Shown piece after piece: positions 1 through 61,634 of a stretch of 64,000 nt of DNA. Where the stretch lies: assembly GCF_030708075.1 (NCBI RefSeq), contig NZ_CP117982.1, forward strand, positions 3,092,672 to 3,156,671, written 5' to 3'. The stretch is from Candidatus Epulonipiscium viviparus (GTDB lineage Bacteria > Bacillota > Clostridia > Lachnospirales > Cellulosilyticaceae). Positions within the stretch are counted from its first letter, which is position 1, and the number at the start of each line of letters is the position of its first letter. The notes below the pieces were generated by a model. It did no database searches. It was not told where the DNA came from and saw only the letters and a program-made list of their open reading frames with translations. Made by a program: the position numbers and the translations under genes.

Positions 1-169
1 ACTTAAAATCATGAAGAATATCTTGAGAAGGTTGATCATTCATGGGCTTAGTGTTAAGCTCTAGAGATACCTTTTTATTTTTAAAATCCATATAAAATTT
101 AAATGGAGTTTTAGAAAGTATCAAAATAACAAAAGGCTTACGCATAATTAATTGTGTGTGGGCTTTTTT
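1..169 (+). ncRNA. Partial antisense module at window edge
   Basis: This stretch is complementary to the 3' half of the toxin ORF and ends in the plus-strand terminator hairpin at 131-169. Its promoter, if any, lies outside the window. Confidence 0.5.
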
Positions 170-265
170 CAGTTGCGAAAGATAGGGCTAAAGATAGGAT
201 TAGTAAAAGAGAAAAAAATTATATTGGATGTTTAGGATTGGATTTTATAGGCAATACTTAAAATA

Positions 266-287
266 GAAAGCACGAATGAGTGCTTTC
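266..287 (-). terminator. Toxin 1 mRNA 3' hairpin
   Basis: An 8-bp stem (GAAAGCAC/GTGCTTTC) with a 6-nt loop lies about 145 nt past the toxin 1 stop. On the minus strand it is followed by TATTTTAAGTATT, so it is a plausible but not strong intrinsic terminator. The same hairpin follows every unit. Confidence 0.6.
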
Positions 288-355
288 TAGAATGTTTTAA
301 TTGGACCATGAAAGTATTTTAAGATAAAGAGAGTATTTTTGTCAAATTAAATATT

Positions 356-384
356 TTTACTCTCATTTGTCATGCATTTATAAT
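356..384 (+). promoter_or_regulatory. Antisense RNA promoter 1
   Basis: TTTACT, a 17-nt spacer and TATAAT face into the 3' end of toxin 1. A transcript starting near 390 would open with a small hairpin (TCATCT/AGATGA) and then run antisense to the toxin mRNA. Confidence 0.7.
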
Positions 385-430
385 AGGTGACATCATCTAT
401 ATGAGATGAAAGTTACCTGTTTATATTTAC

Positions 431-619
431 TTACTCAGAATGATCTTCAAAATCTTCACGAATAATATCGTTAGAAGGTTGATCATTCATGGGCTTAGTG
501 TTAAGCTCTAGAGATACTTTTTTATTTTTAAAATCCATATAAAATTTAAATGGAGTTTTTGAAAGTATCAAAATAACAATAATAATTGCTAAAGCTATAG
601 CTTGTACGTCGCTCATCAT
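431..619 (-). CDS. Holin-like type I toxin, copy 1
   Basis: A 62-aa (or 61-aa) protein starting at tandem ATG codons right after an AAAGGGGGGG ribosome site. The frame is open 19 codons further upstream, but that part lies in the structured leader and is probably untranslated. Residues about 6-19 are a short hydrophobic helix (AIALAIIIVILIL). It is followed by a basic patch (KTPFKFYMDFKNKK) and an acidic tail. This is the layout of small Firmicute membrane toxins (Hol_Tox/TxpA-BsrG type), though the tail is longer than the usual 30-40 aa. Its tail differs from the other copies (ends EDFEDHSE, against EDINDHSE). The antisense promoter at 356-384 faces it. Toxicity is inferred from family resemblance. 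Confidence 0.75.
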   Translation of the reverse strand: MMSDVQAIALAIIIVILILSKTPFKFYMDFKNKKVSLELNTKPMNDQPSNDIIREDFEDHSE

Positions 620-785
620 GGCCCCCCCTTTCTGTGGTAATCTTTCCACAGTCCGAAGTGGGGAACATACAACCACCGCACCCTTCTGTATGCGGTATAT
701 TTGAAAAGCATTGTTTATTGAGCGGCCCGCTTTTCTATGAATATACTCTATATCCGCCTCAATATTAGAGTAATTATATTATACA
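620..785 (-). promoter_or_regulatory. Toxin 1 leader and promoter region
   Basis: On the minus strand a TATAATATAAT box (773-783) is followed by a leader with two hairpins and then the G-rich ribosome site. The structural detail is described for the identical leader of toxin 2. No good -35 box was found. Confidence 0.5.
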
Positions 786-936
786 ATTATTACACAAATA
801 ATACTACTGTGAAATTTAGGAAATATATGTGATATGATTGTGAATTACAAATGCGATGGGGAATGAGAATAATTGTAAAAAAGATTTCGACTGGATGTTT
901 AGGATCGGATTTTATGGGCAATACTTAAAATTGATA

Positions 937-1113
937 TTACTCAGAATGATTTTTAAGAAAAATATCTTCAGAAGGATGATCATTCATGGAATTAGTATTA
1001 AGCTCTAGAGATACTTTTTTATTTTTAAAATCCACATAAAATTTAAATGGAGTTTTAGAAAGTATCAAAATAACAAAAGGCTTACGCATAATTAATTGTG
1101 TGTGGGCTTTTTT
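937..1113 (+). ncRNA. Promoterless antisense module T1
   Basis: A copy of the toxin 3' complement that ends in the plus-strand terminator at 1075-1113, but lacks the TTTACT/TATAAT promoter. Its left flank instead matches the stretch that elsewhere follows an antisense terminator, which points to a recombination junction. Expression is uncertain. Confidence 0.45.
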
Positions 1114-1209
1114 CAGTTGCGAAAGATAGGGCTAAAGATAGGATTAGTAAAAGAGAAAAAAATTATATTGGATGTTTAGGATTGGATTTTATAGGCAATA
1201 CTTAAAATA

Positions 1210-1231
1210 GAAAGCACGAATGAGTGCTTTC
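1210..1231 (-). terminator. Toxin 2 mRNA 3' hairpin
   Basis: GAAAGCAC/GTGCTTTC stem-loop downstream of toxin 2 on the minus strand, followed by TATTTTAAG. Confidence 0.6.
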
Positions 1232-1299
1232 TAGAATGTTTTAATTGGACCATGAAAGTATTTTAAGATAAAGAGAGTTTTTTTGTCAAATTAAAAATT

Positions 1300-1328
1300 G
1301 TTACTCTCATTTGTCTTGAATTTATAAT
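1300..1328 (+). promoter_or_regulatory. Antisense RNA promoter 2
   Basis: TATAAT at 1323-1328 with a weaker -35 (GTTACT) at 17-nt spacing, facing the 3' end of toxin 2. Confidence 0.6.
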
Positions 1329-1375
1329 AGGCGTACATCATCTATATGAGATGAAAGTTACCTGTTTATAGAGAC

Positions 1376-1564
1376 TTACTCAGAATGATCATTAATATCT
1401 TCAAGAAGAATATCTTCAGAAGGCTGATCATTCATGGGCTTAGTGTTAAGCTCTAGAGATACTTTTTTATTTTTAAAATCCATATAAAATTTAAATGGAG
1501 TTTTTGAAAGTATCAAAATAACAATAATAATTGCTAAAGCTATAGCTTGTACGTCGCTCATCAT
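1376..1564 (-). CDS. Holin-like type I toxin, copy 2
   Basis: A 62-aa intact copy with the same double ATG, hydrophobic helix and KTPFKFYMDFKNKK patch as copy 1. The tail reads PSEDILLEDINDHSE. The ribosome site is AAAGGGGGGG, 2 nt before the first ATG. The leader and opposing promoter are both complete, so this is the best reference copy of the locus. Confidence 0.75.
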   Translation of the reverse strand: MMSDVQAIALAIIIVILILSKTPFKFYMDFKNKKVSLELNTKPMNDQPSEDILLEDINDHSE

Positions 1565-1740
1565 GGCCCCCCCTTTCTGTGGTAATCTTTCCACAGTCCG
1601 AAGTGGGGAACATACAACCACCGCACCCTTCTGTATGCGGTATATTTGAAAAGCATTGTTTATTTAGCGGCCCGCTTTTCTATGAATATACTCTATATCC
1701 GCCTCAATATTAGAGTAATTATATTATACAATTATTACAC
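1565..1740 (-). promoter_or_regulatory. Toxin leader with SD-masking structure
   Basis: Minus-strand leader of toxin 2. A hairpin CTGTGG/CCACAG (1577-1596) ends just before the ribosome site, and the run of G in that site can pair with CCCC at 1604-1607. A second hairpin (CCGCA/TGCGG) lies at 1621-1640. This arrangement would keep the toxin start poorly accessible, as known for type I toxin mRNAs. The leader is nearly identical in all toxin copies (also 620-785, 3244-3410, 4625-4790). A relic persists at about 6320-6480, where the ORF itself is gone. Confidence 0.55.
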
Positions 1741-1881
1741 AAATAATACTACTGTGAAATTTAGGAAATATATGTGATGTGATTGTGAATTACAAATGCG
1801 ATGGGGAATGAGAATAATTGTAAAAAAGATTTCGACTGGATGTTTAGGATCGGATTTTATGGGCAATACTTAAAATTGATA

Positions 1882-2066
1882 TTACTCAGAATGATTTTTA
1901 AGAAAAATATCTTCAGAAGATTGATCATTCATGGGTTTAGTATTAAGCTCTAGTGATACTTTTTTATTTTTAAAATCTATATAAAATTTAAATGGAGTTT
2001 TAGAAAGTATCAAAATAACAAAAGGCTTACGCATAATTAATTAATTAATTGTGTGTGGGCTTTTTT
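1882..2066 (+). ncRNA. Promoterless antisense module T2
   Basis: Antisense module ending in a terminator (2020-2066) whose loop is lengthened by extra TTAA repeats. It is followed directly by module T3. Confidence 0.45.
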
Positions 2067-2166
2067 CAGTTTCGAAAGATAGGGCTAAAGATAGGATTAG
2101 TAAAAGAGAAAAAAATTATATTGGATGTTTAGGATTGGATTTTATGGGCAATACTTAAAATTGATA

Positions 2167-2343
2167 TTACTCAGAATGATTTTTAAGAAAAATATCTTCA
2201 GAAGGCTGATCATTCATGGGTTTAGTATTAAGCTCTAGTGATACTTTTTTATTTTTAAAATCTATATAAAATTTAAATGGAGTTTTAGAAAGTATCAAAA
2301 TAACAAAAGGCTTACGCATAATTAATTGTGTGTGGGCTTTTTT
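2167..2343 (+). ncRNA. Promoterless antisense module T3
   Basis: A second consecutive module upstream of toxin 2, with its terminator at 2305-2343. The T2-T3 pair is a local duplication of about 285 bp. Confidence 0.45.
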
Positions 2344-2439
2344 CAGTTGCGAAAGATAGGGCTAAAGATAGGATTAGTAAAAGAGAAAAAAATTATATTG
2401 GATGTTTAGGATTGGATTTTATAGGCGATACTTAAAATA

Positions 2440-2461
2440 GAAAGCACGAATGAGTGCTTTC
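2440..2461 (-). terminator. Unit 3 3' hairpin
   Basis: GAAAGCAC/GTGCTTTC hairpin left of the antisense-only unit. No toxin ORF remains to use it. Confidence 0.5.
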
Positions 2462-2529
2462 TAGAATGTTTTAGTTGGACCATGAAAGTATTTTAAGATA
2501 AAGAGAGTATTTTGTTCAAATTAAAAATT

Positions 2530-2558
2530 TTTACTCTCATTTGTCTTTCGTTTATAAT
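2530..2558 (+). promoter_or_regulatory. Antisense RNA promoter 3
   Basis: TTTACT, 17-nt spacer, TATAAT, driving the stand-alone antisense RNA at 2565-2791. Confidence 0.7.
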
Positions 2559-2564
2559 AGGCGT

Positions 2565-2791
2565 ACATCATCTATATGAGATGAAAGTTACCTGTTTATA
2601 GAGACTTACTCAGAATGATCATTAATATCTTCAAGAAGAATATCTTCAGAAGGTTGATCATTCATGGGTTTAGTGTTAAGCTCTAGAGATTCTTTTTTAT
2701 TTTTAAAATCTATATAAAATTTAAATGGAGTTTTAGAAAGTATCAAAATAGCAAAAGGCTTACGCATAATTATTTGTGTGTGGGCTTTTTT
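2565..2791 (+). ncRNA. Stand-alone antisense RNA gene A
   Basis: A complete small RNA gene of about 227 nt with its own promoter (2530-2558). It opens with a TCATCT/AGATGA hairpin, then about 170 nt complementary to the toxin mRNA from around its stop codon up to the middle of the hydrophobic helix. It closes with an intrinsic terminator at 2753-2791 (13-bp stem with one bulged G, then T6). There is no toxin start or leader here, so any action on toxin mRNA would be in trans. The exact 5' and 3' ends are inferred from promoter and terminator positions. Confidence 0.65.
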
Positions 2792-2887
2792 CAGTTGCGA
2801 AAGATAGGGCTAAAGATAGGATTAGTAAAAGAGAAAAAAATTATATTGGATGTTTAGGATTGGATTTTATAGGCAATACTTAAAATA

Positions 2888-2909
2888 GAAAGCACGAATG
2901 AGTGCTTTC
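2888..2909 (-). terminator. Toxin 3 mRNA 3' hairpin
   Basis: GAAAGCAC/GTGCTTTC hairpin downstream of the frameshifted toxin copy. Confidence 0.55.
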
Positions 2910-2977
2910 TAGAATGTTTTAATTGGACCATGAAAGTATTTTAAGATAAAGAGAGTATTTTGTTCAAATTAAAAATT

Positions 2978-3006
2978 TTTACTCTCATTTGTCTTTCGTT
3001 TATAAT
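2978..3006 (+). promoter_or_regulatory. Antisense RNA promoter 4
   Basis: TTTACT, 17-nt spacer, TATAAT, facing toxin copy 3. Confidence 0.7.
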
Positions 3007-3053
3007 AGGCGTACATCATCTATATGAGATGAAAGTTACCTGTTTATAGAGAC

Positions 3054-3243
3054 TTACTCAGAATGATCATTAATATCTTCATGAAGAATATCTTCAGAAG
3101 GCTGATCATTCATTGGCTTAGTGTTAAGCTCTAGAGATACTTTTTTATTTTTAAAATCCTATATAAAATTTAAATGGAGTTTTTGAAAGTATCAAAATAA
3201 CAATAATAATTGCTAAAGCTATAGCTTGTACGTCGCTCATCAT
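3054..3243 (-). pseudogene. Holin-like toxin copy 3, frameshifted
   Basis: A one-base insertion (cctatat where the others read ccatat, near 3159-3161) shifts the frame after the helix. The readable product, 3151-3243, is 30 aa: the same start and full hydrophobic helix through KTPFKFY, then IGF and TAA. The leader, ribosome site and opposing promoter are unaffected. Because many family members are only about 30 aa long, this short version may still be active, so pseudogene is a cautious label. Confidence 0.7.
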
Positions 3244-3410
3244 GGCCCCCCCTTTCTGTGGTAATCTTTCCACAGTCCGAAGTGGGGAACATACAACCAC
3301 CGCACCCTTCTGTATGCGGTATATTTGAAAAGCATTGTTTATTTAGCGGCCCGCTTTTCTATGAATATACTCTATATCCGCCTCAATATTAGAGTAATTA
3401 TATTATACAA
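3244..3410 (-). promoter_or_regulatory. Toxin 3 leader and promoter region
   Basis: Same leader hairpins and G-rich ribosome site as at toxin 2, essentially unchanged although the ORF is frameshifted. Confidence 0.45.
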
Positions 3411-3560
3411 TTATTACACAAATAATACTACTGTGAAATTTAGGAAATATATGTGATGTGATTGTGAATTACAAATGCGATGGGGAATGAGAATAATTGT
3501 AAAAAAGATTTCGACTGGATGTTTAGGATCGGATTTTATGGGCAATACTTAAAATTGATA

Positions 3561-3737
3561 TTACTCAGAATGATTTTTAAGAAAAATATCTTCAGAAGGT
3601 TGATCATTCATGGGTTTAGTATTAAGCTCTAGTGATACTTTTTTATTTTTAAAATCTATATAAAATTTAAATGGATTTTTAGAAAGTATCAAAATAACAA
3701 AAGGCTTACGCATAATTAATTGTGTGTGGGCTTTTTT
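3561..3737 (+). ncRNA. Promoterless antisense module T4
   Basis: Antisense module upstream of toxin 3, with terminator at 3699-3737. Confidence 0.45.
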
Positions 3738-3834
3738 CAGTTGCGAAAGATAGGGCTAAAGATAGGGATTAGTAAAAGAGAAAAAAATTATATTGGATGT
3801 TTAGGATTGGATTTTATAGGCGATACTTAAAATA

Positions 3835-3856
3835 GAAAGCACAGATGAGTGCTTTC
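3835..3856 (-). terminator. Unit 5 3' hairpin
   Basis: Stem GAAAGCAC/GTGCTTTC with the loop changed to AGATGA. The stem is conserved while the loop varies. Confidence 0.5.
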
Positions 3857-3924
3857 TAGAATGTTTTAATTGGACCATGAAAGTATTTTAAGACAAAGAG
3901 AGTTTTTTTGTCAAATTAAAGATT

Positions 3925-3953
3925 TGTACTCTCATTTGTCTTTCGTTTATAAT
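3925..3953 (+). promoter_or_regulatory. Antisense RNA promoter 5
   Basis: TGTACT, 17-nt spacer, TATAAT. The -35 box is weaker than TTTACT. Confidence 0.6.
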
Positions 3954-3959
3954 AGGCGT

Positions 3960-4172
3960 ACTTCATCTATATGAGATGAAAGTTACCTGTTTATAGTGAA
4001 GTTACTCAGAATGATCATTAGTATCTTCAGAAGGCTGATCATTCATTGGCTTAGTGTTAAGCTCTAGAGATACTTTTTTATTTTTAAAATCCATATAAAA
4101 TTTAAATGGATTTTTAGAAAGTATCAAAATAACAAAAGGCTTACGCATAATTAATTGTGTGTGGGTTTTTTT
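3960..4172 (+). ncRNA. Stand-alone antisense RNA gene B
   Basis: Promoter, 5' hairpin, toxin-complementary body and terminator (4134-4172), as in gene A. It carries a deletion of about 15 nt in the part matching the toxin tail. Its terminator stem has a C-to-T change that still allows G-U pairing. Confidence 0.6.
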
Positions 4173-4269
4173 CAGTTGCGAAAGATAGGGCTAAAGATAG
4201 GATTAGTAAAAGAGAAAAAAAATTATATTGGATGATTAGGATTGGATTTTATAGGCAATACTTAAAATA

Positions 4270-4291
4270 GAAAGCACAGATGAGTGCTTTC
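4270..4291 (-). terminator. Toxin 4 mRNA 3' hairpin
   Basis: GAAAGCAC/GTGCTTTC hairpin with AGATGA loop, downstream of toxin 4. Confidence 0.55.
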
Positions 4292-4359
4292 TAGAATGTT
4301 TTAATTGGACCATGAAAGTATTTTAAGACAAAGAGAGTAGTTGTATCAAATTAAAAATT

Positions 4360-4388
4360 TGTACTCTCATTTGTCTTTCGTTTATAAT
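4360..4388 (+). promoter_or_regulatory. Antisense RNA promoter 6
   Basis: TGTACT, 17-nt spacer, TATAAT, facing toxin 4. Confidence 0.6.
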
Positions 4389-4435
4389 AGGCGTACATCA
4401 TCTATATGAGATGAAAGTTACCTATTTATAGTTAA

Positions 4436-4624
4436 TCACTCAGAATGATCATTAATATCTTCAAGAAGAATATCTTCAGAAGGCTGATCATTCATTGGCT
4501 TAGTGTTAAGCTCTAGAGATACTTTTTTATTTTTAAAATCTATATAAAATTTAAATGGAGTTTTTGAAAGTATCAAAATAACAATAATAATTGCTAAAGC
4601 TATAGCTTGTACGTCGCTCATCAT
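4436..4624 (-). CDS. Holin-like type I toxin, copy 4
   Basis: Intact 62-aa copy, identical to copy 2 except for an M-to-I change in the FYMDF segment (FYIDF) and a TGA rather than TAA stop. The ribosome site and leader (4625-4790) are preserved; the leader's distal part starts to diverge (for example TTTATATTTG). Confidence 0.75.
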   Translation of the reverse strand: MMSDVQAIALAIIIVILILSKTPFKFYIDFKNKKVSLELNTKPMNDQPSEDILLEDINDHSE

Positions 4625-4941
4625 GGCCCCCCCTTTCTGTGGTAATCTTTCCACAGTCCGAAGTGGGGAACATACAACCACCGCACCCTTCTGTATGCGG
4701 TATATTTGAAAAGCATTGTTTATTTAGCGGCCCGCTTTTCTATGAATGTACTTTATATTTGCCTCAATATTAGAGTAATTATATTATACAATTATTACAT
4801 AAATAATACTACTGTGAAATTTAGGAAATATATGTGATATGATTGTGAATTACAAATGCGATGGGGAATGAGAATAATTGTAAAAAAGATTTCGACTGGA
4901 TGCTTAGGATCGGATTTTATGGGCAATACTTAAAATTGATA

Positions 4942-5117
4942 TTACTCAGAATGATTTTTAAGAAAAATATCTTCAGAAGGTTGATCATTCATGGGTTTAG
5001 TATTAACCTCTAGTGATACTTTTTTATTTTTAAAATCTATATAAAATTTAAATGGAGTTTTTGAAAGTATCAAAATGCAAAAGGCTTACGCATAATTATT
5101 TGTGTGTGGGCTTTTTT
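4942..5117 (+). ncRNA. Promoterless antisense module T5
   Basis: Antisense module upstream of toxin 4, with terminator at 5079-5117 and a small deletion just before it. Confidence 0.45.
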
Positions 5118-5214
5118 CAGTTTCGAAAGATAGGGCTAAAGATAGGGATTAGTAAAAGAGAAAAAAATTATATTGGATGTTTAGGATTGGATTTTATAGG
5201 CAATACTTAAAATA

Positions 5215-5236
5215 GAAAGCACAGATGAGTGCTTTC
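5215..5236 (-). terminator. Unit 7 3' hairpin
   Basis: Last intact GAAAGCAC/GTGCTTTC hairpin before the decayed part. Confidence 0.5.
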
Positions 5237-5304
5237 TAGAATGTTTTAATTGGACCATGAAAGTATTTTAAGACAAAGAGAGTAGTTGTATCAAATTAAA
5301 AATT

Positions 5305-5333
5305 TGTACTCTCATTTGTCTTTCGTTTATAAT
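5305..5333 (+). promoter_or_regulatory. Antisense RNA promoter 7
   Basis: TGTACT, 17-nt spacer, TATAAT, driving antisense gene C. Confidence 0.6.
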
Positions 5334-5339
5334 AGGCGT

Positions 5340-5563
5340 ACATCATCTATATGAGATGAAAGTTACCTATTTATAGTTAATCACTCAGAATGATCATTAA
5401 TATCTTCAAGAAGAATATCTTCAGAAGGCTGATCATTCATTGGCTTAGTGTTAAGCTCTAGAGATACATTTTTATTTTTAAAATCCACATAAAATTTAAA
5501 TGGAGTTTTAGAAAGTATCAAAATAACAAAAAGCTTACGCATAATTAAATGTGTTTGGCTTTT
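5340..5563 (+). ncRNA. Stand-alone antisense RNA gene C
   Basis: Same order of elements as gene A, but the terminator (5527-5563) is degrading: the stem has changed and only T4 remains. It marks the edge between intact and decayed array. Confidence 0.5.
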
Positions 5564-5565
5564 CA

Positions 5566-6480
5566 GTTGCGAATATAGGGCTAAAGATATGATTAGTAAA
5601 CGAAGAAAAAGATTAATTGATGTTAGGATGGATTTATAGCATATTTAAATGAAAGCCGAATGATCTTTCTTTAGATATTGTTTAGTTGATATGAAGTTTT
5701 TAAGCATTAGAGAGTGATTTCAAATATAAGATTTTTACTCGTAATTGATTGATTATAATAGGTCTACTCAGTCTAATGTGAGATATAATACCTGTTTAGT
5801 TGAACTACTCAGATATGATCATTATATCTCAAGAAGAAATCTTCAGAAGCTTGATCATTATGGCTTTAGTGTAAGGTTCTTTAAGAATTTATTTTATAAA
5901 TTCTATAAAATTTACAATATGGAGTTTTTTGAAAGTACTAAATGCAAAGCTTACGGCACGCATAATTAATTTTGTGGCTGTTTCAGTTGCTGAAAGAAGG
6001 TCTATAAGATAGGATTATAAAAGAAAAAAATTATATGGATTTTAGATTGATTATATGCAATTCTAAAATAGGAAAGGCACGAATATGCTTGCTAGAAATT
6101 TTAGTTGACCAATTAAAGTATTAAAAAAAGAGTGTTTTGAAATTAAAATTGTAATGTTGCTCATTTATTTAGATATAATGGGTAAGCTTCATCTATATGA
6201 GAGAGAGTTGTATTTTAGTCTAATTCAGAAATATAGTAAAATTTCACGAAGATATATTCATAAGTTGATCATTGTAGGCTAGTATGAGTGTTTCTCTCTC
6301 TTATTGTAAGCTTTTAATGTTAGTAGGGAACATACAACCACCGCATCCTTATGTATGCGATATATTTGAACAGCATTGCTTATTTAGTAGCCCGCTTTTC
6401 TATGAATGTACTTTATATTTGCCTCAATATTAGAGTAATTGCATTATATAAGTATTACATAAATAATGGTGTAGTAAAAT
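5566..6480. pseudogene. Decayed toxin/antisense units
   Basis: The repeat continues with many small deletions. One antisense-type unit spans about 5566-6000, with a recognisable TATAATAGG at about 5754. A more eroded one spans about 6000-6300. A relic of the toxin leader and promoter region follows at about 6320-6480. The toxin ORF itself is not recoverable. From 6481 to 6774 nothing beyond A/T-rich DNA is supported. Confidence 0.7.
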
Positions 6481-6774
6481 CTAAGTGATATATGTGATAG
6501 CCTTGCAGAATGCGATGAAAATGAAAGTAACATTAAAAATATATTCAACCGACAGTAAAGTAAATTTGCATGTTTATTTTTTGCTCACTCATATTTTGCG
6601 TATCTCCTCAGATTTTTTTGTGTTATTGACCAAAGTGCATCAACGCTATATAATAAGAAATACAAAATTGATTACTAAAATTAATTATTAAAAAATATGT
6701 GAAACCGTAGATTATTGCGAAAAAATGTGCTATCATTTTTTATTTACAATAACATGAGAAAGAGGTATCAAAAT

Positions 6775-7265: not shown

Positions 7266-7892
7266 ATGGCAAAACTTATAGGTTTTTCAGGAAGTCCAAT
7301 GCCTAATAGCAATACCGATAAAGCTGTTATTAAAATTTTGGAAGAAAGTGGTGTTGAGTACGAATTTATTAAGCTCAGTAAACTGAATATTGCACCCTGT
7401 AGAGCTTGTAAGGCATGTGTTAAAGATAATATTTGCAAAGTGAAAGACGATTTTCCGGCACTGGCCGAAAAAATGAAAGAAGCAGATGGCTATGTCTTTG
7501 GCGTCTATACTCCTTATATGATGGCTGATGCGTTCAGCAAAAGTTTATTAGAGAGAATGTGGTCTATGCGTCACAATACTGCATTAAACGCTGGCAAATT
7601 ATGTATATCAGTAGTTAATTCCTGTGTCCCTGCATTAGCAGATTCGGTGCACGACGCCATTGCGATGGAGAACAAGATGGAAGACATGATAAATGTTGGA
7701 CGCCTAACTATAGCAGGAAAGCCGCCATGTATTGGATGCGGTTCGGGGCATACATGCATCAAAAGCAATGCGCTAAAGGAATTAAACGGAAACCCGGATG
7801 GTGCGCATTTGTTTGTAAAATTGGAAGATCAAAAAGAAGTCTACGAGAAGGCCAAAGAATTGGGTCAAGAGTTAGGTAGAAGATTAAGATAA
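7266..7892 (+). CDS. Iron-sulfur flavoprotein (NADPH-dependent FMN reductase-like)
   Basis: 208 aa. It begins LIGFSGSPMPNSNTDKAV, the FMN-binding GSP-x-x-x-S-N loop of the NADPH-dependent FMN reductase/flavodoxin superfamily. Near residue 45 a compact cysteine motif CRACKACVKDNIC (C-x2-C-x2-C-x5-C) fits the iron-sulfur cluster site of iron-sulfur flavoproteins. A second cysteine group, CIGCGSGHTC, lies near residue 155. ATG at 7266 is chosen because GGAG precedes it by 9 nt; the upstream in-frame TTG has no ribosome site. It probably moves electrons in the cytoplasm. The physiological donor is unknown. Confidence 0.8.
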   Translation: MAKLIGFSGSPMPNSNTDKAVIKILEESGVEYEFIKLSKLNIAPCRACKACVKDNICKVKDDFPALAEKMKEADGYVFGVYTPYMMADAFSKSLLERMWSMRHNTALNAGKLCISVVNSCVPALADSVHDAIAMENKMEDMINVGRLTIAGKPPCIGCGSGHTCIKSNALKELNGNPDGAHLFVKLEDQKEVYEKAKELGQELGRRLR

Positions 7893-7900
7893 AAAATATA

Positions 7901-7936
7901 GCCACCGCTGATTCTATTACAGTCGGTGGTTTTTTT
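7901..7936 (+). terminator. Intrinsic terminator after flavoprotein gene
   Basis: Stem CCACCG-CTG/CAG-CGGTGG with one bulged T, followed by T7, 8 nt after the stop. Confidence 0.9.
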
Positions 7937-10208
7937 GATCAGCCATCGCTCGATCAAGCCGCCACACAAATCGATGATACATAAACTGAAGCGTCACGAG
8001 ACAACAAAGCTCCCATCGCTGAAACTTCAATAATGGTGGGAGACGTGTTCCAAGATTTGCCATCGCTCGAACAAGCTGCCACACAAATCGATAATACATA
8101 ATCTGAAACCTCCCGACAACAAAGCTCCCTGCGCTGAGTTTGCCATCGATCGATCAAACTGCCACACAAATCGATAATACATAATCTGGAGCCTCCCGAC
8201 AACAAAGCTCCCTGCGCTGAGTTTGCCATCGTTCGATCAAACTGCCACACAAATCGATAATACATAATCTGAAACCTCCCGACAACAAAGCTCCCATCGC
8301 TGAAACTTCAATAATGGTGGGAGACGTGTTCCAAGATTTGCCATCGCTCGATCAAACTGCCACACAAATCGATAATACATAATCTGAAACCTCCCGACAA
8401 CAAAGCTCCCTGCGCTGAGTTTGCCATCGTTCGATCAAGCTGCCACACAAATCGATAATACATAATCTGAAGCCTCCCAACACCAAAGCTCCCATCGCTG
8501 AAACTTCAATAATGGTGGGAGACGTGTTCCAAGATTTGCCATCGCTCGAACAAGCTGCCACACAAATCGATAATACATAATCTGAAACCTCCCGACAACA
8601 AAGCTCCCAGCGCTGAAACTTCAATAGAGGTGGGAGACGCGTTCTAAGATTTACCATCGCTCGATCAAACTGCCACACAAATCGATATACATAATCGAAA
8701 AACCTCCCGACAACAAAAGCTCCCGCGCTGAGTTTGCCATCCCTCGATCAAGCTGCCACACACATCGATGATACATAATCTGAAACCTCCCGACAACAAA
8801 GCTCCCATCGCTGAAACTTCAATAATGGTGGGAGACGTGTTCCAAGATTTGCCATCGCTCGATCAAGCTGCCACACAAATCGATAATACATAATCTGAAA
8901 CCTCCCGACAACAAAGCTCCCATCGCTGAAACTTCAATAATGGTGGGAGACGTGTTCTAAGATCTGCCATCGCTCGATCAAGCCGCCACACAAATCGATG
9001 ATACATAATCTGAAGCTTCACGACAAAAAAAACTCCCGTCGCTGAGATTTCAATAGCGGCGAGAGACGCGTTCTAAGATTTACCATCGCTCGATCAAACT
9101 GCCCACACAAATCGATTATACATAATCTGGAGCCTCCCGACAAAAAAGCTCCCATCGCTGAAATTTCAATAGTGGTGGGAGACGTGTTCTAAGATTTACC
9201 ATCGCTCGGTCAAGCTGCTACACAAATCGATTGTTCTAAGATTTGCCATCACTCGATCAAGCTGCCACACAAAACGATGATACATAATCTGAAGCCACGA
9301 GACAACCAAACTCCCCATCGCTGCAACTCCAATAGTGGTGGGAGACGCGTTCTAAGATTTACCATCGCTCGATCAAGCTGCCACACAAATCGATGATACA
9401 TAATCTGAAGCTTCACGACAAAAAAAACTCCCGTCGCTGAGATTTCAATAGCGGCGAGAGACGTGTTCTAAGATTTACCATCGCTCGATCAAGCTGCCAC
9501 ACAAATCGATAATACATAATCTGAAACCTCCCGACAACAAAGCTCCCATCGCTGAAACTTCAATAATGGTGGGAGACGTGTTCCAAGATTTGCCATCGCT
9601 CGAACAAGCTGCCACACAAATCGATAATACATAATCTGAAACCTCCCGACAACAAAGCTCCCATCGCTGAAACTTCAATAGCGGCGGGAGACGTGTTCTA
9701 AGATTTACCATCGTTCGATCAAGCTCCCACACAAATCGATAATACATAATCTGAAGCCTCCCAACACCAAAGCTCCCATCGCTGAAACTTCAATAGTGAT
9801 GGGAGACGTGTTCTAAGATTTACCATCGCTCGATCAAGCTGCCACACAAATCGAAGATACATAATCTGAAACCTCCCGACAACAACCCCCCGGCGCTGAG
9901 TTTGCTATCGCTCGATCAAGCTGCCACACAAAGCGATGATACATAATCTGAAGCCTCCCAACAACAAAGCTCCCGGCGCAGAGTTTGCCATCGCTCGATC
10001 AAGCTGCCACACAAATCGATGATACATAATCTGAAGCTTCACGACAACAAAGCTCCCATCGCTGCAACTTCAATAGAGGTGGGAGACGCGTTCTAAGATT
10101 TACCATCGCTCGATCAAACTGCCACACAAATCGATAATACATAATCTGAAGCTTCACGACAAAAAAAACTCCCGTCGCTGAGATTTCAATAGCGGCGAGA
10201 GACGTGTT
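7937..10208. repeat. Hairpin-bearing tandem repeat array (about 22 units)
   Basis: Units of about 75-115 bp alternate two modules. The A module (about 73 bp, containing CACACAAATCGATRATAC) is in every unit. The B module (about 42 bp) is in about half. B together with the end of A forms a stem-loop starting CTCCC and ending GGGAG or GAGAG, with about 12 bp and a TTCAA-containing loop. Stem variants change on both sides: CTCCCATCGCTG pairs with TAGTGATGGGAG, and CTCCCGTCGCTG with TAGCGGCGAGAG. Frames through it are short and the unit length is not a multiple of three. No gene is supported here. Confidence 0.85.
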
Positions 10209-61370: not shown

Positions 61371-61634
61371 TTGCAGATCTCCTTTTATATTGTGATACGT
61401 GTAAGAGTAGCAGTGATTTGAGATATTTTCAAGGCTGTAAAGATATTATGTAGATGAATGATCCTCTCGCGGAAGATCATTCATAGTCTTATTTTGTAGT
61501 CCAATTGTAAAAACATTCTAAATAGCACATTTAAGCGCTTTCTCTGTTTGTCGAAAGAATCTCCCATGACAAAGATTCTTTCTAATGTTATTATTACCTA
61601 AAATATTTAAAATTAAACATGAAATACAAAAAAA
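61371..61634. other. Intergenic hairpins between ABC genes and GH133
   Basis: Two inverted repeats: TGAATGATC/GATCATTCA (about 61453-61481) and GAAAGAATC/GATTCTTTC (about 61554-61583). The second lies past the ABC ATPase stop and may end that transcript, although it lacks a T run. Confidence 0.4.

What the first reader, a model, noticed from the sequence alone, without database searches (positions are those of the whole stretch)
1..5565. Type I toxin array with stand-alone antisense RNA genes
Three intact toxin ORFs and one frameshifted copy each face an opposing promoter (TTTACT- or TGTACT-like, 17 nt, TATAAT) just past the toxin stop. Three further units (2565-2791, 3960-4172, 5340-5563) keep only that promoter, a 5' hairpin, about 170 nt complementary to the toxin mRNA and an intrinsic terminator. 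So the array seems to hold more antitoxin than toxin genes, including dedicated trans-acting ones. Known type I pairs are usually one toxin with one cis antisense RNA. Promoters and complementarity are seen; function is inferred.
Basis: partly seen in the sequence, partly recalled or inferred. Interest (0 to 1): 0.82.

Follow-up and report, generated by a model that had tools for sequence, protein, structure and literature searches.

The report
Toxin array with excess antitoxin RNAs
A giant fish-gut bacterium carries a tandem array in which a few genes for a small membrane peptide, probably a toxin, are outnumbered by RNA genes that look built to silence it; similar single pairs occur in its relatives.

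Summary
The window is from Candidatus Epulonipiscium viviparus or a very close relative. A second strain shows 4 toxin units and 14 complete antisense-only ones before its contig ends.
Thirteen loci from seven other species show the single-locus form. Three features recur: a structured toxin 5' leader; a 5'-3' complementarity within the toxin mRNA with compensatory changes (95.5% of cells paired, slid controls 31-41%); and an antisense promoter, TGTTTA-N18-TATAAT-like, in 13 of 14 loci tested (control mean 2.2). A site of this form (P1) opens all 12 array units. P1 also led to an orphan antisense gene at 61619 (-).
No protein or RNA library gave a convincing match. Orphan and trans-acting type I antitoxins are known elsewhere. 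Toxicity and transcription are untested.

The parts
431..619 (-). toxin ORF, unit U1 (62 aa, intact)
1376..1564 (-). toxin ORF, unit U2 (62 aa, intact)
3151..3243 (-). toxin ORF, unit U4, frameshifted, stops after 30 residues
4436..4624 (-). toxin ORF, unit U6 (62 aa, intact)
606..697 (-). toxin mRNA 5' leader and start (U1): leader hairpin, GGTTGTATGTT, local hairpin, masked ribosome-binding site; same at 1551-1642, 3230-3321, 4611-4702
264..289 (.). hairpin: terminator-like for the toxin mRNA (-) and 5' hairpin of a P1 antisense RNA (+); also at 1208, 2438, 2886, 3833, 4268, 5213
290..314 (+). antisense core GAATGTTTTAATTGGACCATGAAAG; its complement in the toxin mRNA 3'UTR is complementary to the toxin 5' leader; also at 1234, 2464, 2912, 3859, 4294, 5239
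229..258 (+). P1, TGTTTA-N15-GGC-AATACT, of U1; one per unit, also at 896, 1173, 1841, 2126, 2403, 2851, 3520, 3798, 4233, 4901, 5178 (variant hexamers at 2403, 3798, 4233, 4901)
356..384 (+). P2 (TTTACT-N17-TATAAT) of U1; also near 1300, 2530, 2978, 3925, 4360, 5305
2403..2791 (+). antisense-only unit S1 with P1, hairpin, core, P2, toxin-complementary part and terminator
3798..4172 (+). antisense-only unit S2
5178..5563 (+). antisense-only unit S3, weaker terminator
896..1115 (+). P2-less antisense-only unit (P1, toxin-complementary part, 17-bp terminator)
1841..2068 (+). P2-less antisense-only unit
2126..2346 (+). P2-less antisense-only unit
3520..3740 (+). P2-less antisense-only unit
4901..5118 (+). 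P2-less antisense-only unit
1..172 (+). truncated antisense-only unit at the left edge; its P1 lies at -26, outside the window
5565..6500 (.). decayed array end with remnants of the P2 region, terminator, toxin 5' leader and promoter region
61450..61619 (-). orphan antisense gene: P1-like site at 61619, hairpins, GAATGTTTTTACAATTGGAC core; on the + strand remnant codons MNDPLAEDHS* at 61454-61486, directly behind an in-frame stop

Best explanation
This is a tandem array of a type I toxin-antitoxin locus of a family that is not in the libraries searched. The minus strand makes an mRNA for a 62-residue peptide with one hydrophobic segment and a charged tail. Its ribosome-binding site is masked by the leader. 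The 3' end of the same mRNA carries a sequence complementary to the leader, and that complementarity is kept by compensatory change in relatives. The plus strand makes antisense RNAs from P1, the promoter shared with relatives, and in Epulonipiscium viviparus also from P2. They are complementary to the 3' part of the toxin mRNA, and the P1 form of the units that carry the core also covers the 3' partner of the leader. The likely effect is that they keep the toxin untranslated and mark its mRNA for degradation. In this species the locus has multiplied, and copies that lack the toxin's first half, leader and promoter but keep an antisense promoter and terminator (8 complete ones) act as extra antitoxin genes for the few toxin genes. 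Shown by sequence: repeats, ORFs, complementarity, terminator hairpins, conserved P1, covarying complementarity. Inferred: transcription, toxicity, repression in trans.
For: Leader model: 20 of 392 genomes of the order match at E <= 0.05, ten of them below 1e-6, two of those ten being E. viviparus itself; opened loci show leader, hydrophobic peptide and, except G096, the antisense side. Leader-3'UTR complementarity: 12 distinct rows, 95.5% of cells paired, 10 cells changed on both sides, covariation 0.248; slid versions 31-41% and 0-1 cells; 0 of 500 shuffles reach the percentage, the doubly changed cells or the score. P1 in 13 of 14 loci, Markov control mean 2.2, maximum 6. Antisense-only units: 176-190 nt complementary at 86-98%, P2-less ones 115-132 nt at 91-94%. 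Terminator hairpin: 8 of 9 short units here match its pattern, the truncated one included, S3 not; 14 of 14 short units of the other strain have it, -14.8 to -20.4 kcal/mol. Six intact toxin ORFs from two strains differ in codons 1-49 by four silent and one M/I change. All peptides examined have a hydrophobic segment.
Against: No transcript data, no toxicity data. The peptide matches no known toxin family above its cut-off. Two of 12 P1 sites have GATACT and two others an altered first hexamer, so P1 may be weak or absent in some. One toxin copy is frameshifted and the array end is decayed, as expected also for drifting repeats. By eye, the antisense terminator that relatives have inside the toxin's end has lost its U-run here, so the antisense RNA of a toxin unit has no obvious end before the next unit. 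With the leader-3'UTR pairing fully forced, the fold lies 0.4-13.3 kcal/mol above the minimum in 13 of 13 mRNAs, and its main helix has probability of at least 0.5 in only 3 of 13. The number of pairs with a change on both sides and the number of pair types do not exceed shuffles (75 and 467 of 500). G096 has the leader but no recognisable 3' partner.
Confidence: 0.72

Rival explanations
1. A repeat array that expands and contracts by unequal recombination. The antisense-only units are broken copies without function, and only the toxin units with their own antisense RNA, or none, matter.
For: Unit number and order differ between two closely related strains (4 toxin and 8 complete antisense-only units against 4 and 14); decayed right end; frameshifted toxin copy; recombination is important in populations of this organism (PMC8245194, abstract and passages).
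Against: 12 of 12 units keep a P1-like site, TATAAT of P2 stands in 7 of 7 and 10 of 10 units of that type in the two strains, and the terminator hairpin is kept in 8 of 9 and 14 of 14 short units. Homogenisation could also explain this, so it is not decisive. An orphan outside the array keeps P1 and core.
Confidence: 0.22
2. The peptide is a small membrane protein with a regulatory or structural role and the antisense RNA tunes its level; there is no toxin.
For: Toxicity untested; no library family; a charged tail longer than I recall for most type I toxins.
Against: A masked ribosome-binding site, 5'-3' pairing and a convergent antisense RNA are features of studied type I toxins (PMC4147584 and PMC6733600, passages). 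In the genus mate G002 only a 23-34 residue hydrophobic peptide stands behind a similar leader, one with a sub-threshold match to the holin-like toxin model (E 0.0063, 16.8 bits against 23.3).
Confidence: 0.15
3. Leader and antisense core are alike because both bind the same unknown partner, not because the mRNA's ends pair.
For: The same compensatory pattern would arise; the pairing is not the lowest-energy fold.
Against: Complementarity covers two helices and by eye extends beyond the core in some loci (G016, G010); 5'-3' pairing has precedent in aapA mRNAs (PMC6733600, passages) and, as I recall, in hok.
Confidence: 0.2

Closest known systems
txpA/RatA and bsrG/SR4 (Bacillus type I pairs)
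   Same: Antisense RNA overlapping the toxin mRNA at its 3' end; in bsrG a ribosome-binding site in a stem (PMC4147584, passages); short hydrophobic toxins (recalled)
   Different: No match in the Pfam and NCBIfam models, no direct sequence comparison made; here an array with antisense-only units
C. difficile CD0977.1/RCd11 and relatives
   Same: Convergent; two tandem start sites for the antitoxin; a near-identical non-cognate antitoxin works in trans (PMC7699646, passages)
   Different: Not compared by sequence here; no array of antitoxin-only units in the passages read
aapA/IsoA (Helicobacter); hok/sok
   Same: Toxin mRNA with 5'-3' long-distance pairing (PMC6733600, passages; for hok recalled)
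   Different: In aapA the pairing masks the ribosome-binding site; here forced pairing raises its predicted exposure in 12 of 13 mRNAs, to at least 0.5 in 5, so the sign of its effect is open
Fst/par (RNA I/RNA II)
   Same: Convergent pair with repeats linking leader and antisense RNA (PMC4147584 and PMC3543317, passages)
   Different: In Fst the repeats are direct, so the antitoxin pairs with the leader; here they are inverted, so the mRNA's own 3' end is complementary to the leader
zor/orz of E. coli
   Same: Tandem type I pairs and antitoxin-only loci; an orphan orz was confirmed by northern (PMC11264685, passages)
   Different: No array of orphans in the passages read; sequences not compared

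Membership tests
type I toxin-antitoxin systems | small protein, typically under 60 aa (PMC11264685, abstract), with a hydrophobic segment (recalled) | tested here: met
   62 aa, slightly above; best 17-residue hydropathy 2.61; relatives 23-68 aa, 2.16-3.43
type I toxin-antitoxin systems | antisense RNA gene complementary to the toxin mRNA | tested here: met
   complementarity, conserved promoter, terminator hairpins; transcription not shown
type I toxin-antitoxin systems | the protein arrests growth when expressed | not testable with these tools
   needs expression in a laboratory strain
type I toxin-antitoxin systems | the RNA represses the toxin mRNA | not testable with these tools
   needs a two-plasmid test
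Hol_Tox (PF16935) | match above Pfam's gathering score | tested here: not met
   no match for the E. viviparus peptide; G002d 16.8 bits against 23.3
Fst/par family | direct repeats making the antitoxin complementary to the toxin leader | tested here: not met
   leader and antisense core have the same sense in their own RNAs
Any Rfam family | match at gathering score | tested here: not met
   none in the 64-kb window, none at E <= 1 in 1-6600; in five relative loci only a tRNA reached gathering

The most novel reading that the evidence does not exclude
P1 is read by a forespore-type sigma factor, so the extra antitoxin RNAs are made in the developing offspring and protect it, while the toxin takes part in the programmed death that opens the giant mother cell. 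Basis: in 7 of 8 Epulonipiscium loci with a site P1 has the form TGTTTA-N15-GGN-(T/A)ATA(C/A)T, close to the site upstream of spoIIR in the same genome (TGTATA-N15-GGCAATAACT), with the same spacer as gpr there. Mother-cell death is reported for this organism (PMC8245194, passages). Against: the sigma consensus is recalled; the genus locus G003a has GTT; five species outside the genus have P1 with a housekeeping-like TGNTATAAT; a stress sigma factor is as possible (C. difficile type I pairs have SigA- and SigB-type promoters); P2 looks like a housekeeping promoter.
Probability: 0.1. Interest if true: 0.92.

Novelty: new variant of a known kind. Interest (0 to 1): 0.62.

Why it matters
Type I systems are usually studied as one toxin with one antisense RNA. 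Here a locus with a recognisable single-copy form in relatives has turned into an array with two or more antisense-only genes per toxin gene, in a bacterium with tens of thousands of genome copies and a programmed mother-cell death. It gives a family without a library model, a leader model that can be used for search, a conserved 5'-3' complementarity in a Gram-positive toxin mRNA that can be tested by compensatory mutation, and a promoter motif that found an orphan antitoxin gene in the same window.

Tried and rejected
Toxin protein alignment in viral contigs, leader pattern in viral contigs, array DNA in plasmids, toxin proteins in phages and plasmids: no matches. DNA search in 96 relatives: 17 genomes had a match, the window's own among them; of the relatives' loci I looked at two, L023 real, L024 not. 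Pattern hits L076 and L077 show no such peptide or antisense side and were rejected. Weak protein hits L053 and L068 show no leader motif in the 701 bases read of each and were rejected. The ten genomes with leader-model E between 5e-4 and 0.04 were not opened, nor was a weak second hit in G015.

The idea that the short units' minus-strand ORFs (MRKPF...) are proteins was set aside: by eye no ribosome-binding site precedes them and they start inside the terminator hairpin. A minus-strand promoter-like site in the P2 region was noted and not pursued. A MAFFT alignment of orphan and array antisense genes was poor; their relation rests on P1, core, tail codons and pairing energy. My first translation upstream of the orphan's tail was out of frame; one search is in frame. 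Folding did not settle what the 5'-3' pairing does: forcing it raises ribosome-site exposure in 12 of 13 mRNAs (G002d unchanged at 0.60), by 0.01 to 0.90, but its main helix is the majority state in only 3 of 13. A paper search for the sigma-F consensus found none, so it is recalled. Searches for print on this array or family; nothing listed describes it by title or abstract start, in an open-access library only.
Full report
WHERE IT IS. The window is bases 3092672-3156671 of a 3.28-Mb genome in one contig. A named contig of Candidatus Epulonipiscium viviparus strain N.t. morphotype B encodes the 62-aa peptide identically, and its flank is 98.2% identical over 8.7 kb to the sequence left of our array. 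The 25 matches of a unit in our genome lie in one stretch, 3092628-3099170.

WHAT THE ARRAY HOLDS. I cut the repeats into modules and mapped them in both strains. A = hairpin, antisense core, P2; B = the toxin's second half; C1 = the toxin's first half, leader and promoter region; C2 = antisense terminator. The other strain has four toxin units, six A-B-C2 and eight complete B-C2 units before the contig runs out. Each of the eight toxin units is followed by a B-C2 unit; the last one of the other strain is cut by the contig end. The other strain's third toxin copy has undetermined bases, so its state is unknown.

THE TOXIN. Three of four copies here are open for 62 codons; the fourth stops after 30. 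Six intact copies from the two strains differ in codons 1-49 by four silent and one M/I change; the tail is variable. Pfam, NCBIfam and PHROGs give no convincing match; for relatives' peptides the best PHROGs E is 0.013 and the Pfam and NCBIfam matches stay below their cut-offs.

RELATIVES. A leader pattern matched 9 of 392 genomes of the order, 7 of them real by inspection, two of the seven being E. viviparus; the pattern read backwards matched in 2 genomes. A covariance model of the leader matched 20 of 392 at E <= 0.05, ten of them below 1e-6. I opened 13 loci and G012, G010 and G096 besides; two (G003d, G002e) were at contig ends and were dropped, leaving 14. The genus mates G003 and G002 have tandem pairs 589 and 473 bases apart. 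G002 also has a contig with three P1 sites and a leader-like motif. G002's five peptides are 23-34 residues long behind a similar leader.

THE 5'-3' COMPLEMENTARITY. In relatives the toxin mRNA's 3' region carries the complement of the leader's GGgCUAUG and AUGUU. Windows were cut at sequence anchors: found in 13 of 14 relative loci (not G096) and in 7 of 8 E. viviparus toxin units (not the one with undetermined bases). After removing identical rows, 12 remain. 95.5% of cells pair, against 31-41% when slid; ten cells have changes on both sides, against 0-1; four pairs show such changes, for example A-U to G-C in G002 and U-A to G-C in G006. Shuffles are exceeded for three measures, not for the number of pairs changed on both sides (75 of 500) nor the number of pair types (467 of 500). 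The anchors partly fix the conserved letters, so the doubly changed cells are the stronger evidence. In folding, forcing this pairing raises exposure of the ribosome-binding site in 12 of 13 mRNAs (0.03 to 0.93 in G015, 0.02 to 0.22-0.33 in E. viviparus), but unforced its main helix reaches probability 0.5 in only 3 of 13. I hold the pairing likely (about 0.8) and its effect open. One reading is that the 3' end acts as an opener which the antisense RNA captures; the other is a closing of the mRNA as in aapA.

THE ANTISENSE PROMOTERS. Upstream of the antisense core, 13 of 14 loci (13 relatives and one E. viviparus unit; G096 not tested) have TGTTTA (at most one mismatch), 18 nt, and a TATAAT-like hexamer; Markov-resampled sequences give 2.2 on average and 6 at most of 14. 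The fourteenth, G002f, has one further out. In our array a site of this form opens each of 12 units: eight with both hexamers as in the commonest copy, two with GATACT, two with a changed first hexamer; the pattern TG[TAC]TTA-N18-[TA]ATA[AC]T finds 10 of 12. So P1 is the shared antisense promoter and the P2-less units are not promoterless. Between toxin stop and core, an exact TATAAT stands in 7 of 7 readable E. viviparus toxin units and 0 of 13 relative loci; forms with one mismatch occur in 8 of those 13. P2 thus looks like an addition in this species.

TERMINATORS. The C2 hairpin pattern is found in 8 of 9 short units here, the truncated one included, with 17 base pairs where folded; S3's is weaker. 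In the other strain 14 of 14 short units have it, -14.8 to -20.4 kcal/mol.

AN ORPHAN OUTSIDE THE ARRAY. In window 6601-64000, both strands, TGTTTA-N18-[TA]ATA[AC]T occurs once, at 61619 (-). It also occurs twice in 93,306 strand-bases of 13 sporulation-gene loci from four genomes of the genus and not in the left flank. The site at 61619 is followed by two hairpins and GAATGTTTTTACAATTGGAC, and the opposite strand carries MNDPLAEDHS*, like the toxin's tail, directly behind an in-frame stop. A long open frame lies on either side, so no toxin first half remains. Its core pairs with the array toxin's 3'UTR at -20.4 kcal/mol against -7.3 +/- 2.9 in 500 Markov-resampled cores, none as good; shared descent would give this too.

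WHICH SIGMA FACTOR. In the genus, P1 reads TGTTTA-N15-GGN in 7 of 8 loci with a site, GTT in G003a. The upstream region of spoIIR in our genome has TGTATA-N15-GGCAATAACT, gpr has TGCATA-N15-GGAGAAACTA, sigG TGTATA-N14-GGGTATCCTA. A sigma-F-like site of P1's quality occurs 3 times in 114,000 strand-bases of the window outside the array, one of them the orphan's P1. The consensus is recalled, I considered several sigma factors, and five species outside the genus have TGN instead of GGN, so this is a lead only.

PLACE AMONG KNOWN SYSTEMS. It works like a convergent Gram-positive type I pair. Toxicity and repression, which define the kind, could not be tested. Fst's direct-repeat logic was tested and not met. 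Orphan antitoxins, trans-acting near-identical antitoxins and double antitoxin starts, and 5'-3' pairing each have precedent. What I did not find in print, is this family or an array in which antisense-only genes outnumber toxins.

Noticed in passing
window 61450-61619 (-): Orphan antisense gene of the same family, found through P1 alone, with a remnant of a toxin tail on the other strand.
   Followed up: partly
window 5565-6500: Right end of the array is a decayed unit with many small deletions, while the toxin leader and promoter remnant (6322-6499) is still 88% alike over 178 nt (97-100% for the other copies).
   Followed up: no
window 316-345, 1260-1289, 3885-3914 (-): TTGACA-N18-TAAAAT site on the minus strand just before the leader-complementary element; could start a ~50-nt RNA that is antisense to part of the leader.
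   Followed up: no
L154 (G002:C60) 1-1600: Another tandem set in a genus mate, with three P1 sites and a leader-like motif.
   Followed up: partly
L159 (54, -) and L145 (near 3852, +): P1-like site without antisense core, beside a short hairpin sequence that looks like the end of a mobile element; one search lists six G002 contigs with short matches to little more than P1.
   Followed up: no
L021 about 7600-8580 (left of the array): The left flank reads like a coding stretch almost up to the array; the flank is shared at 98.2% with the named strain.
   Followed up: no
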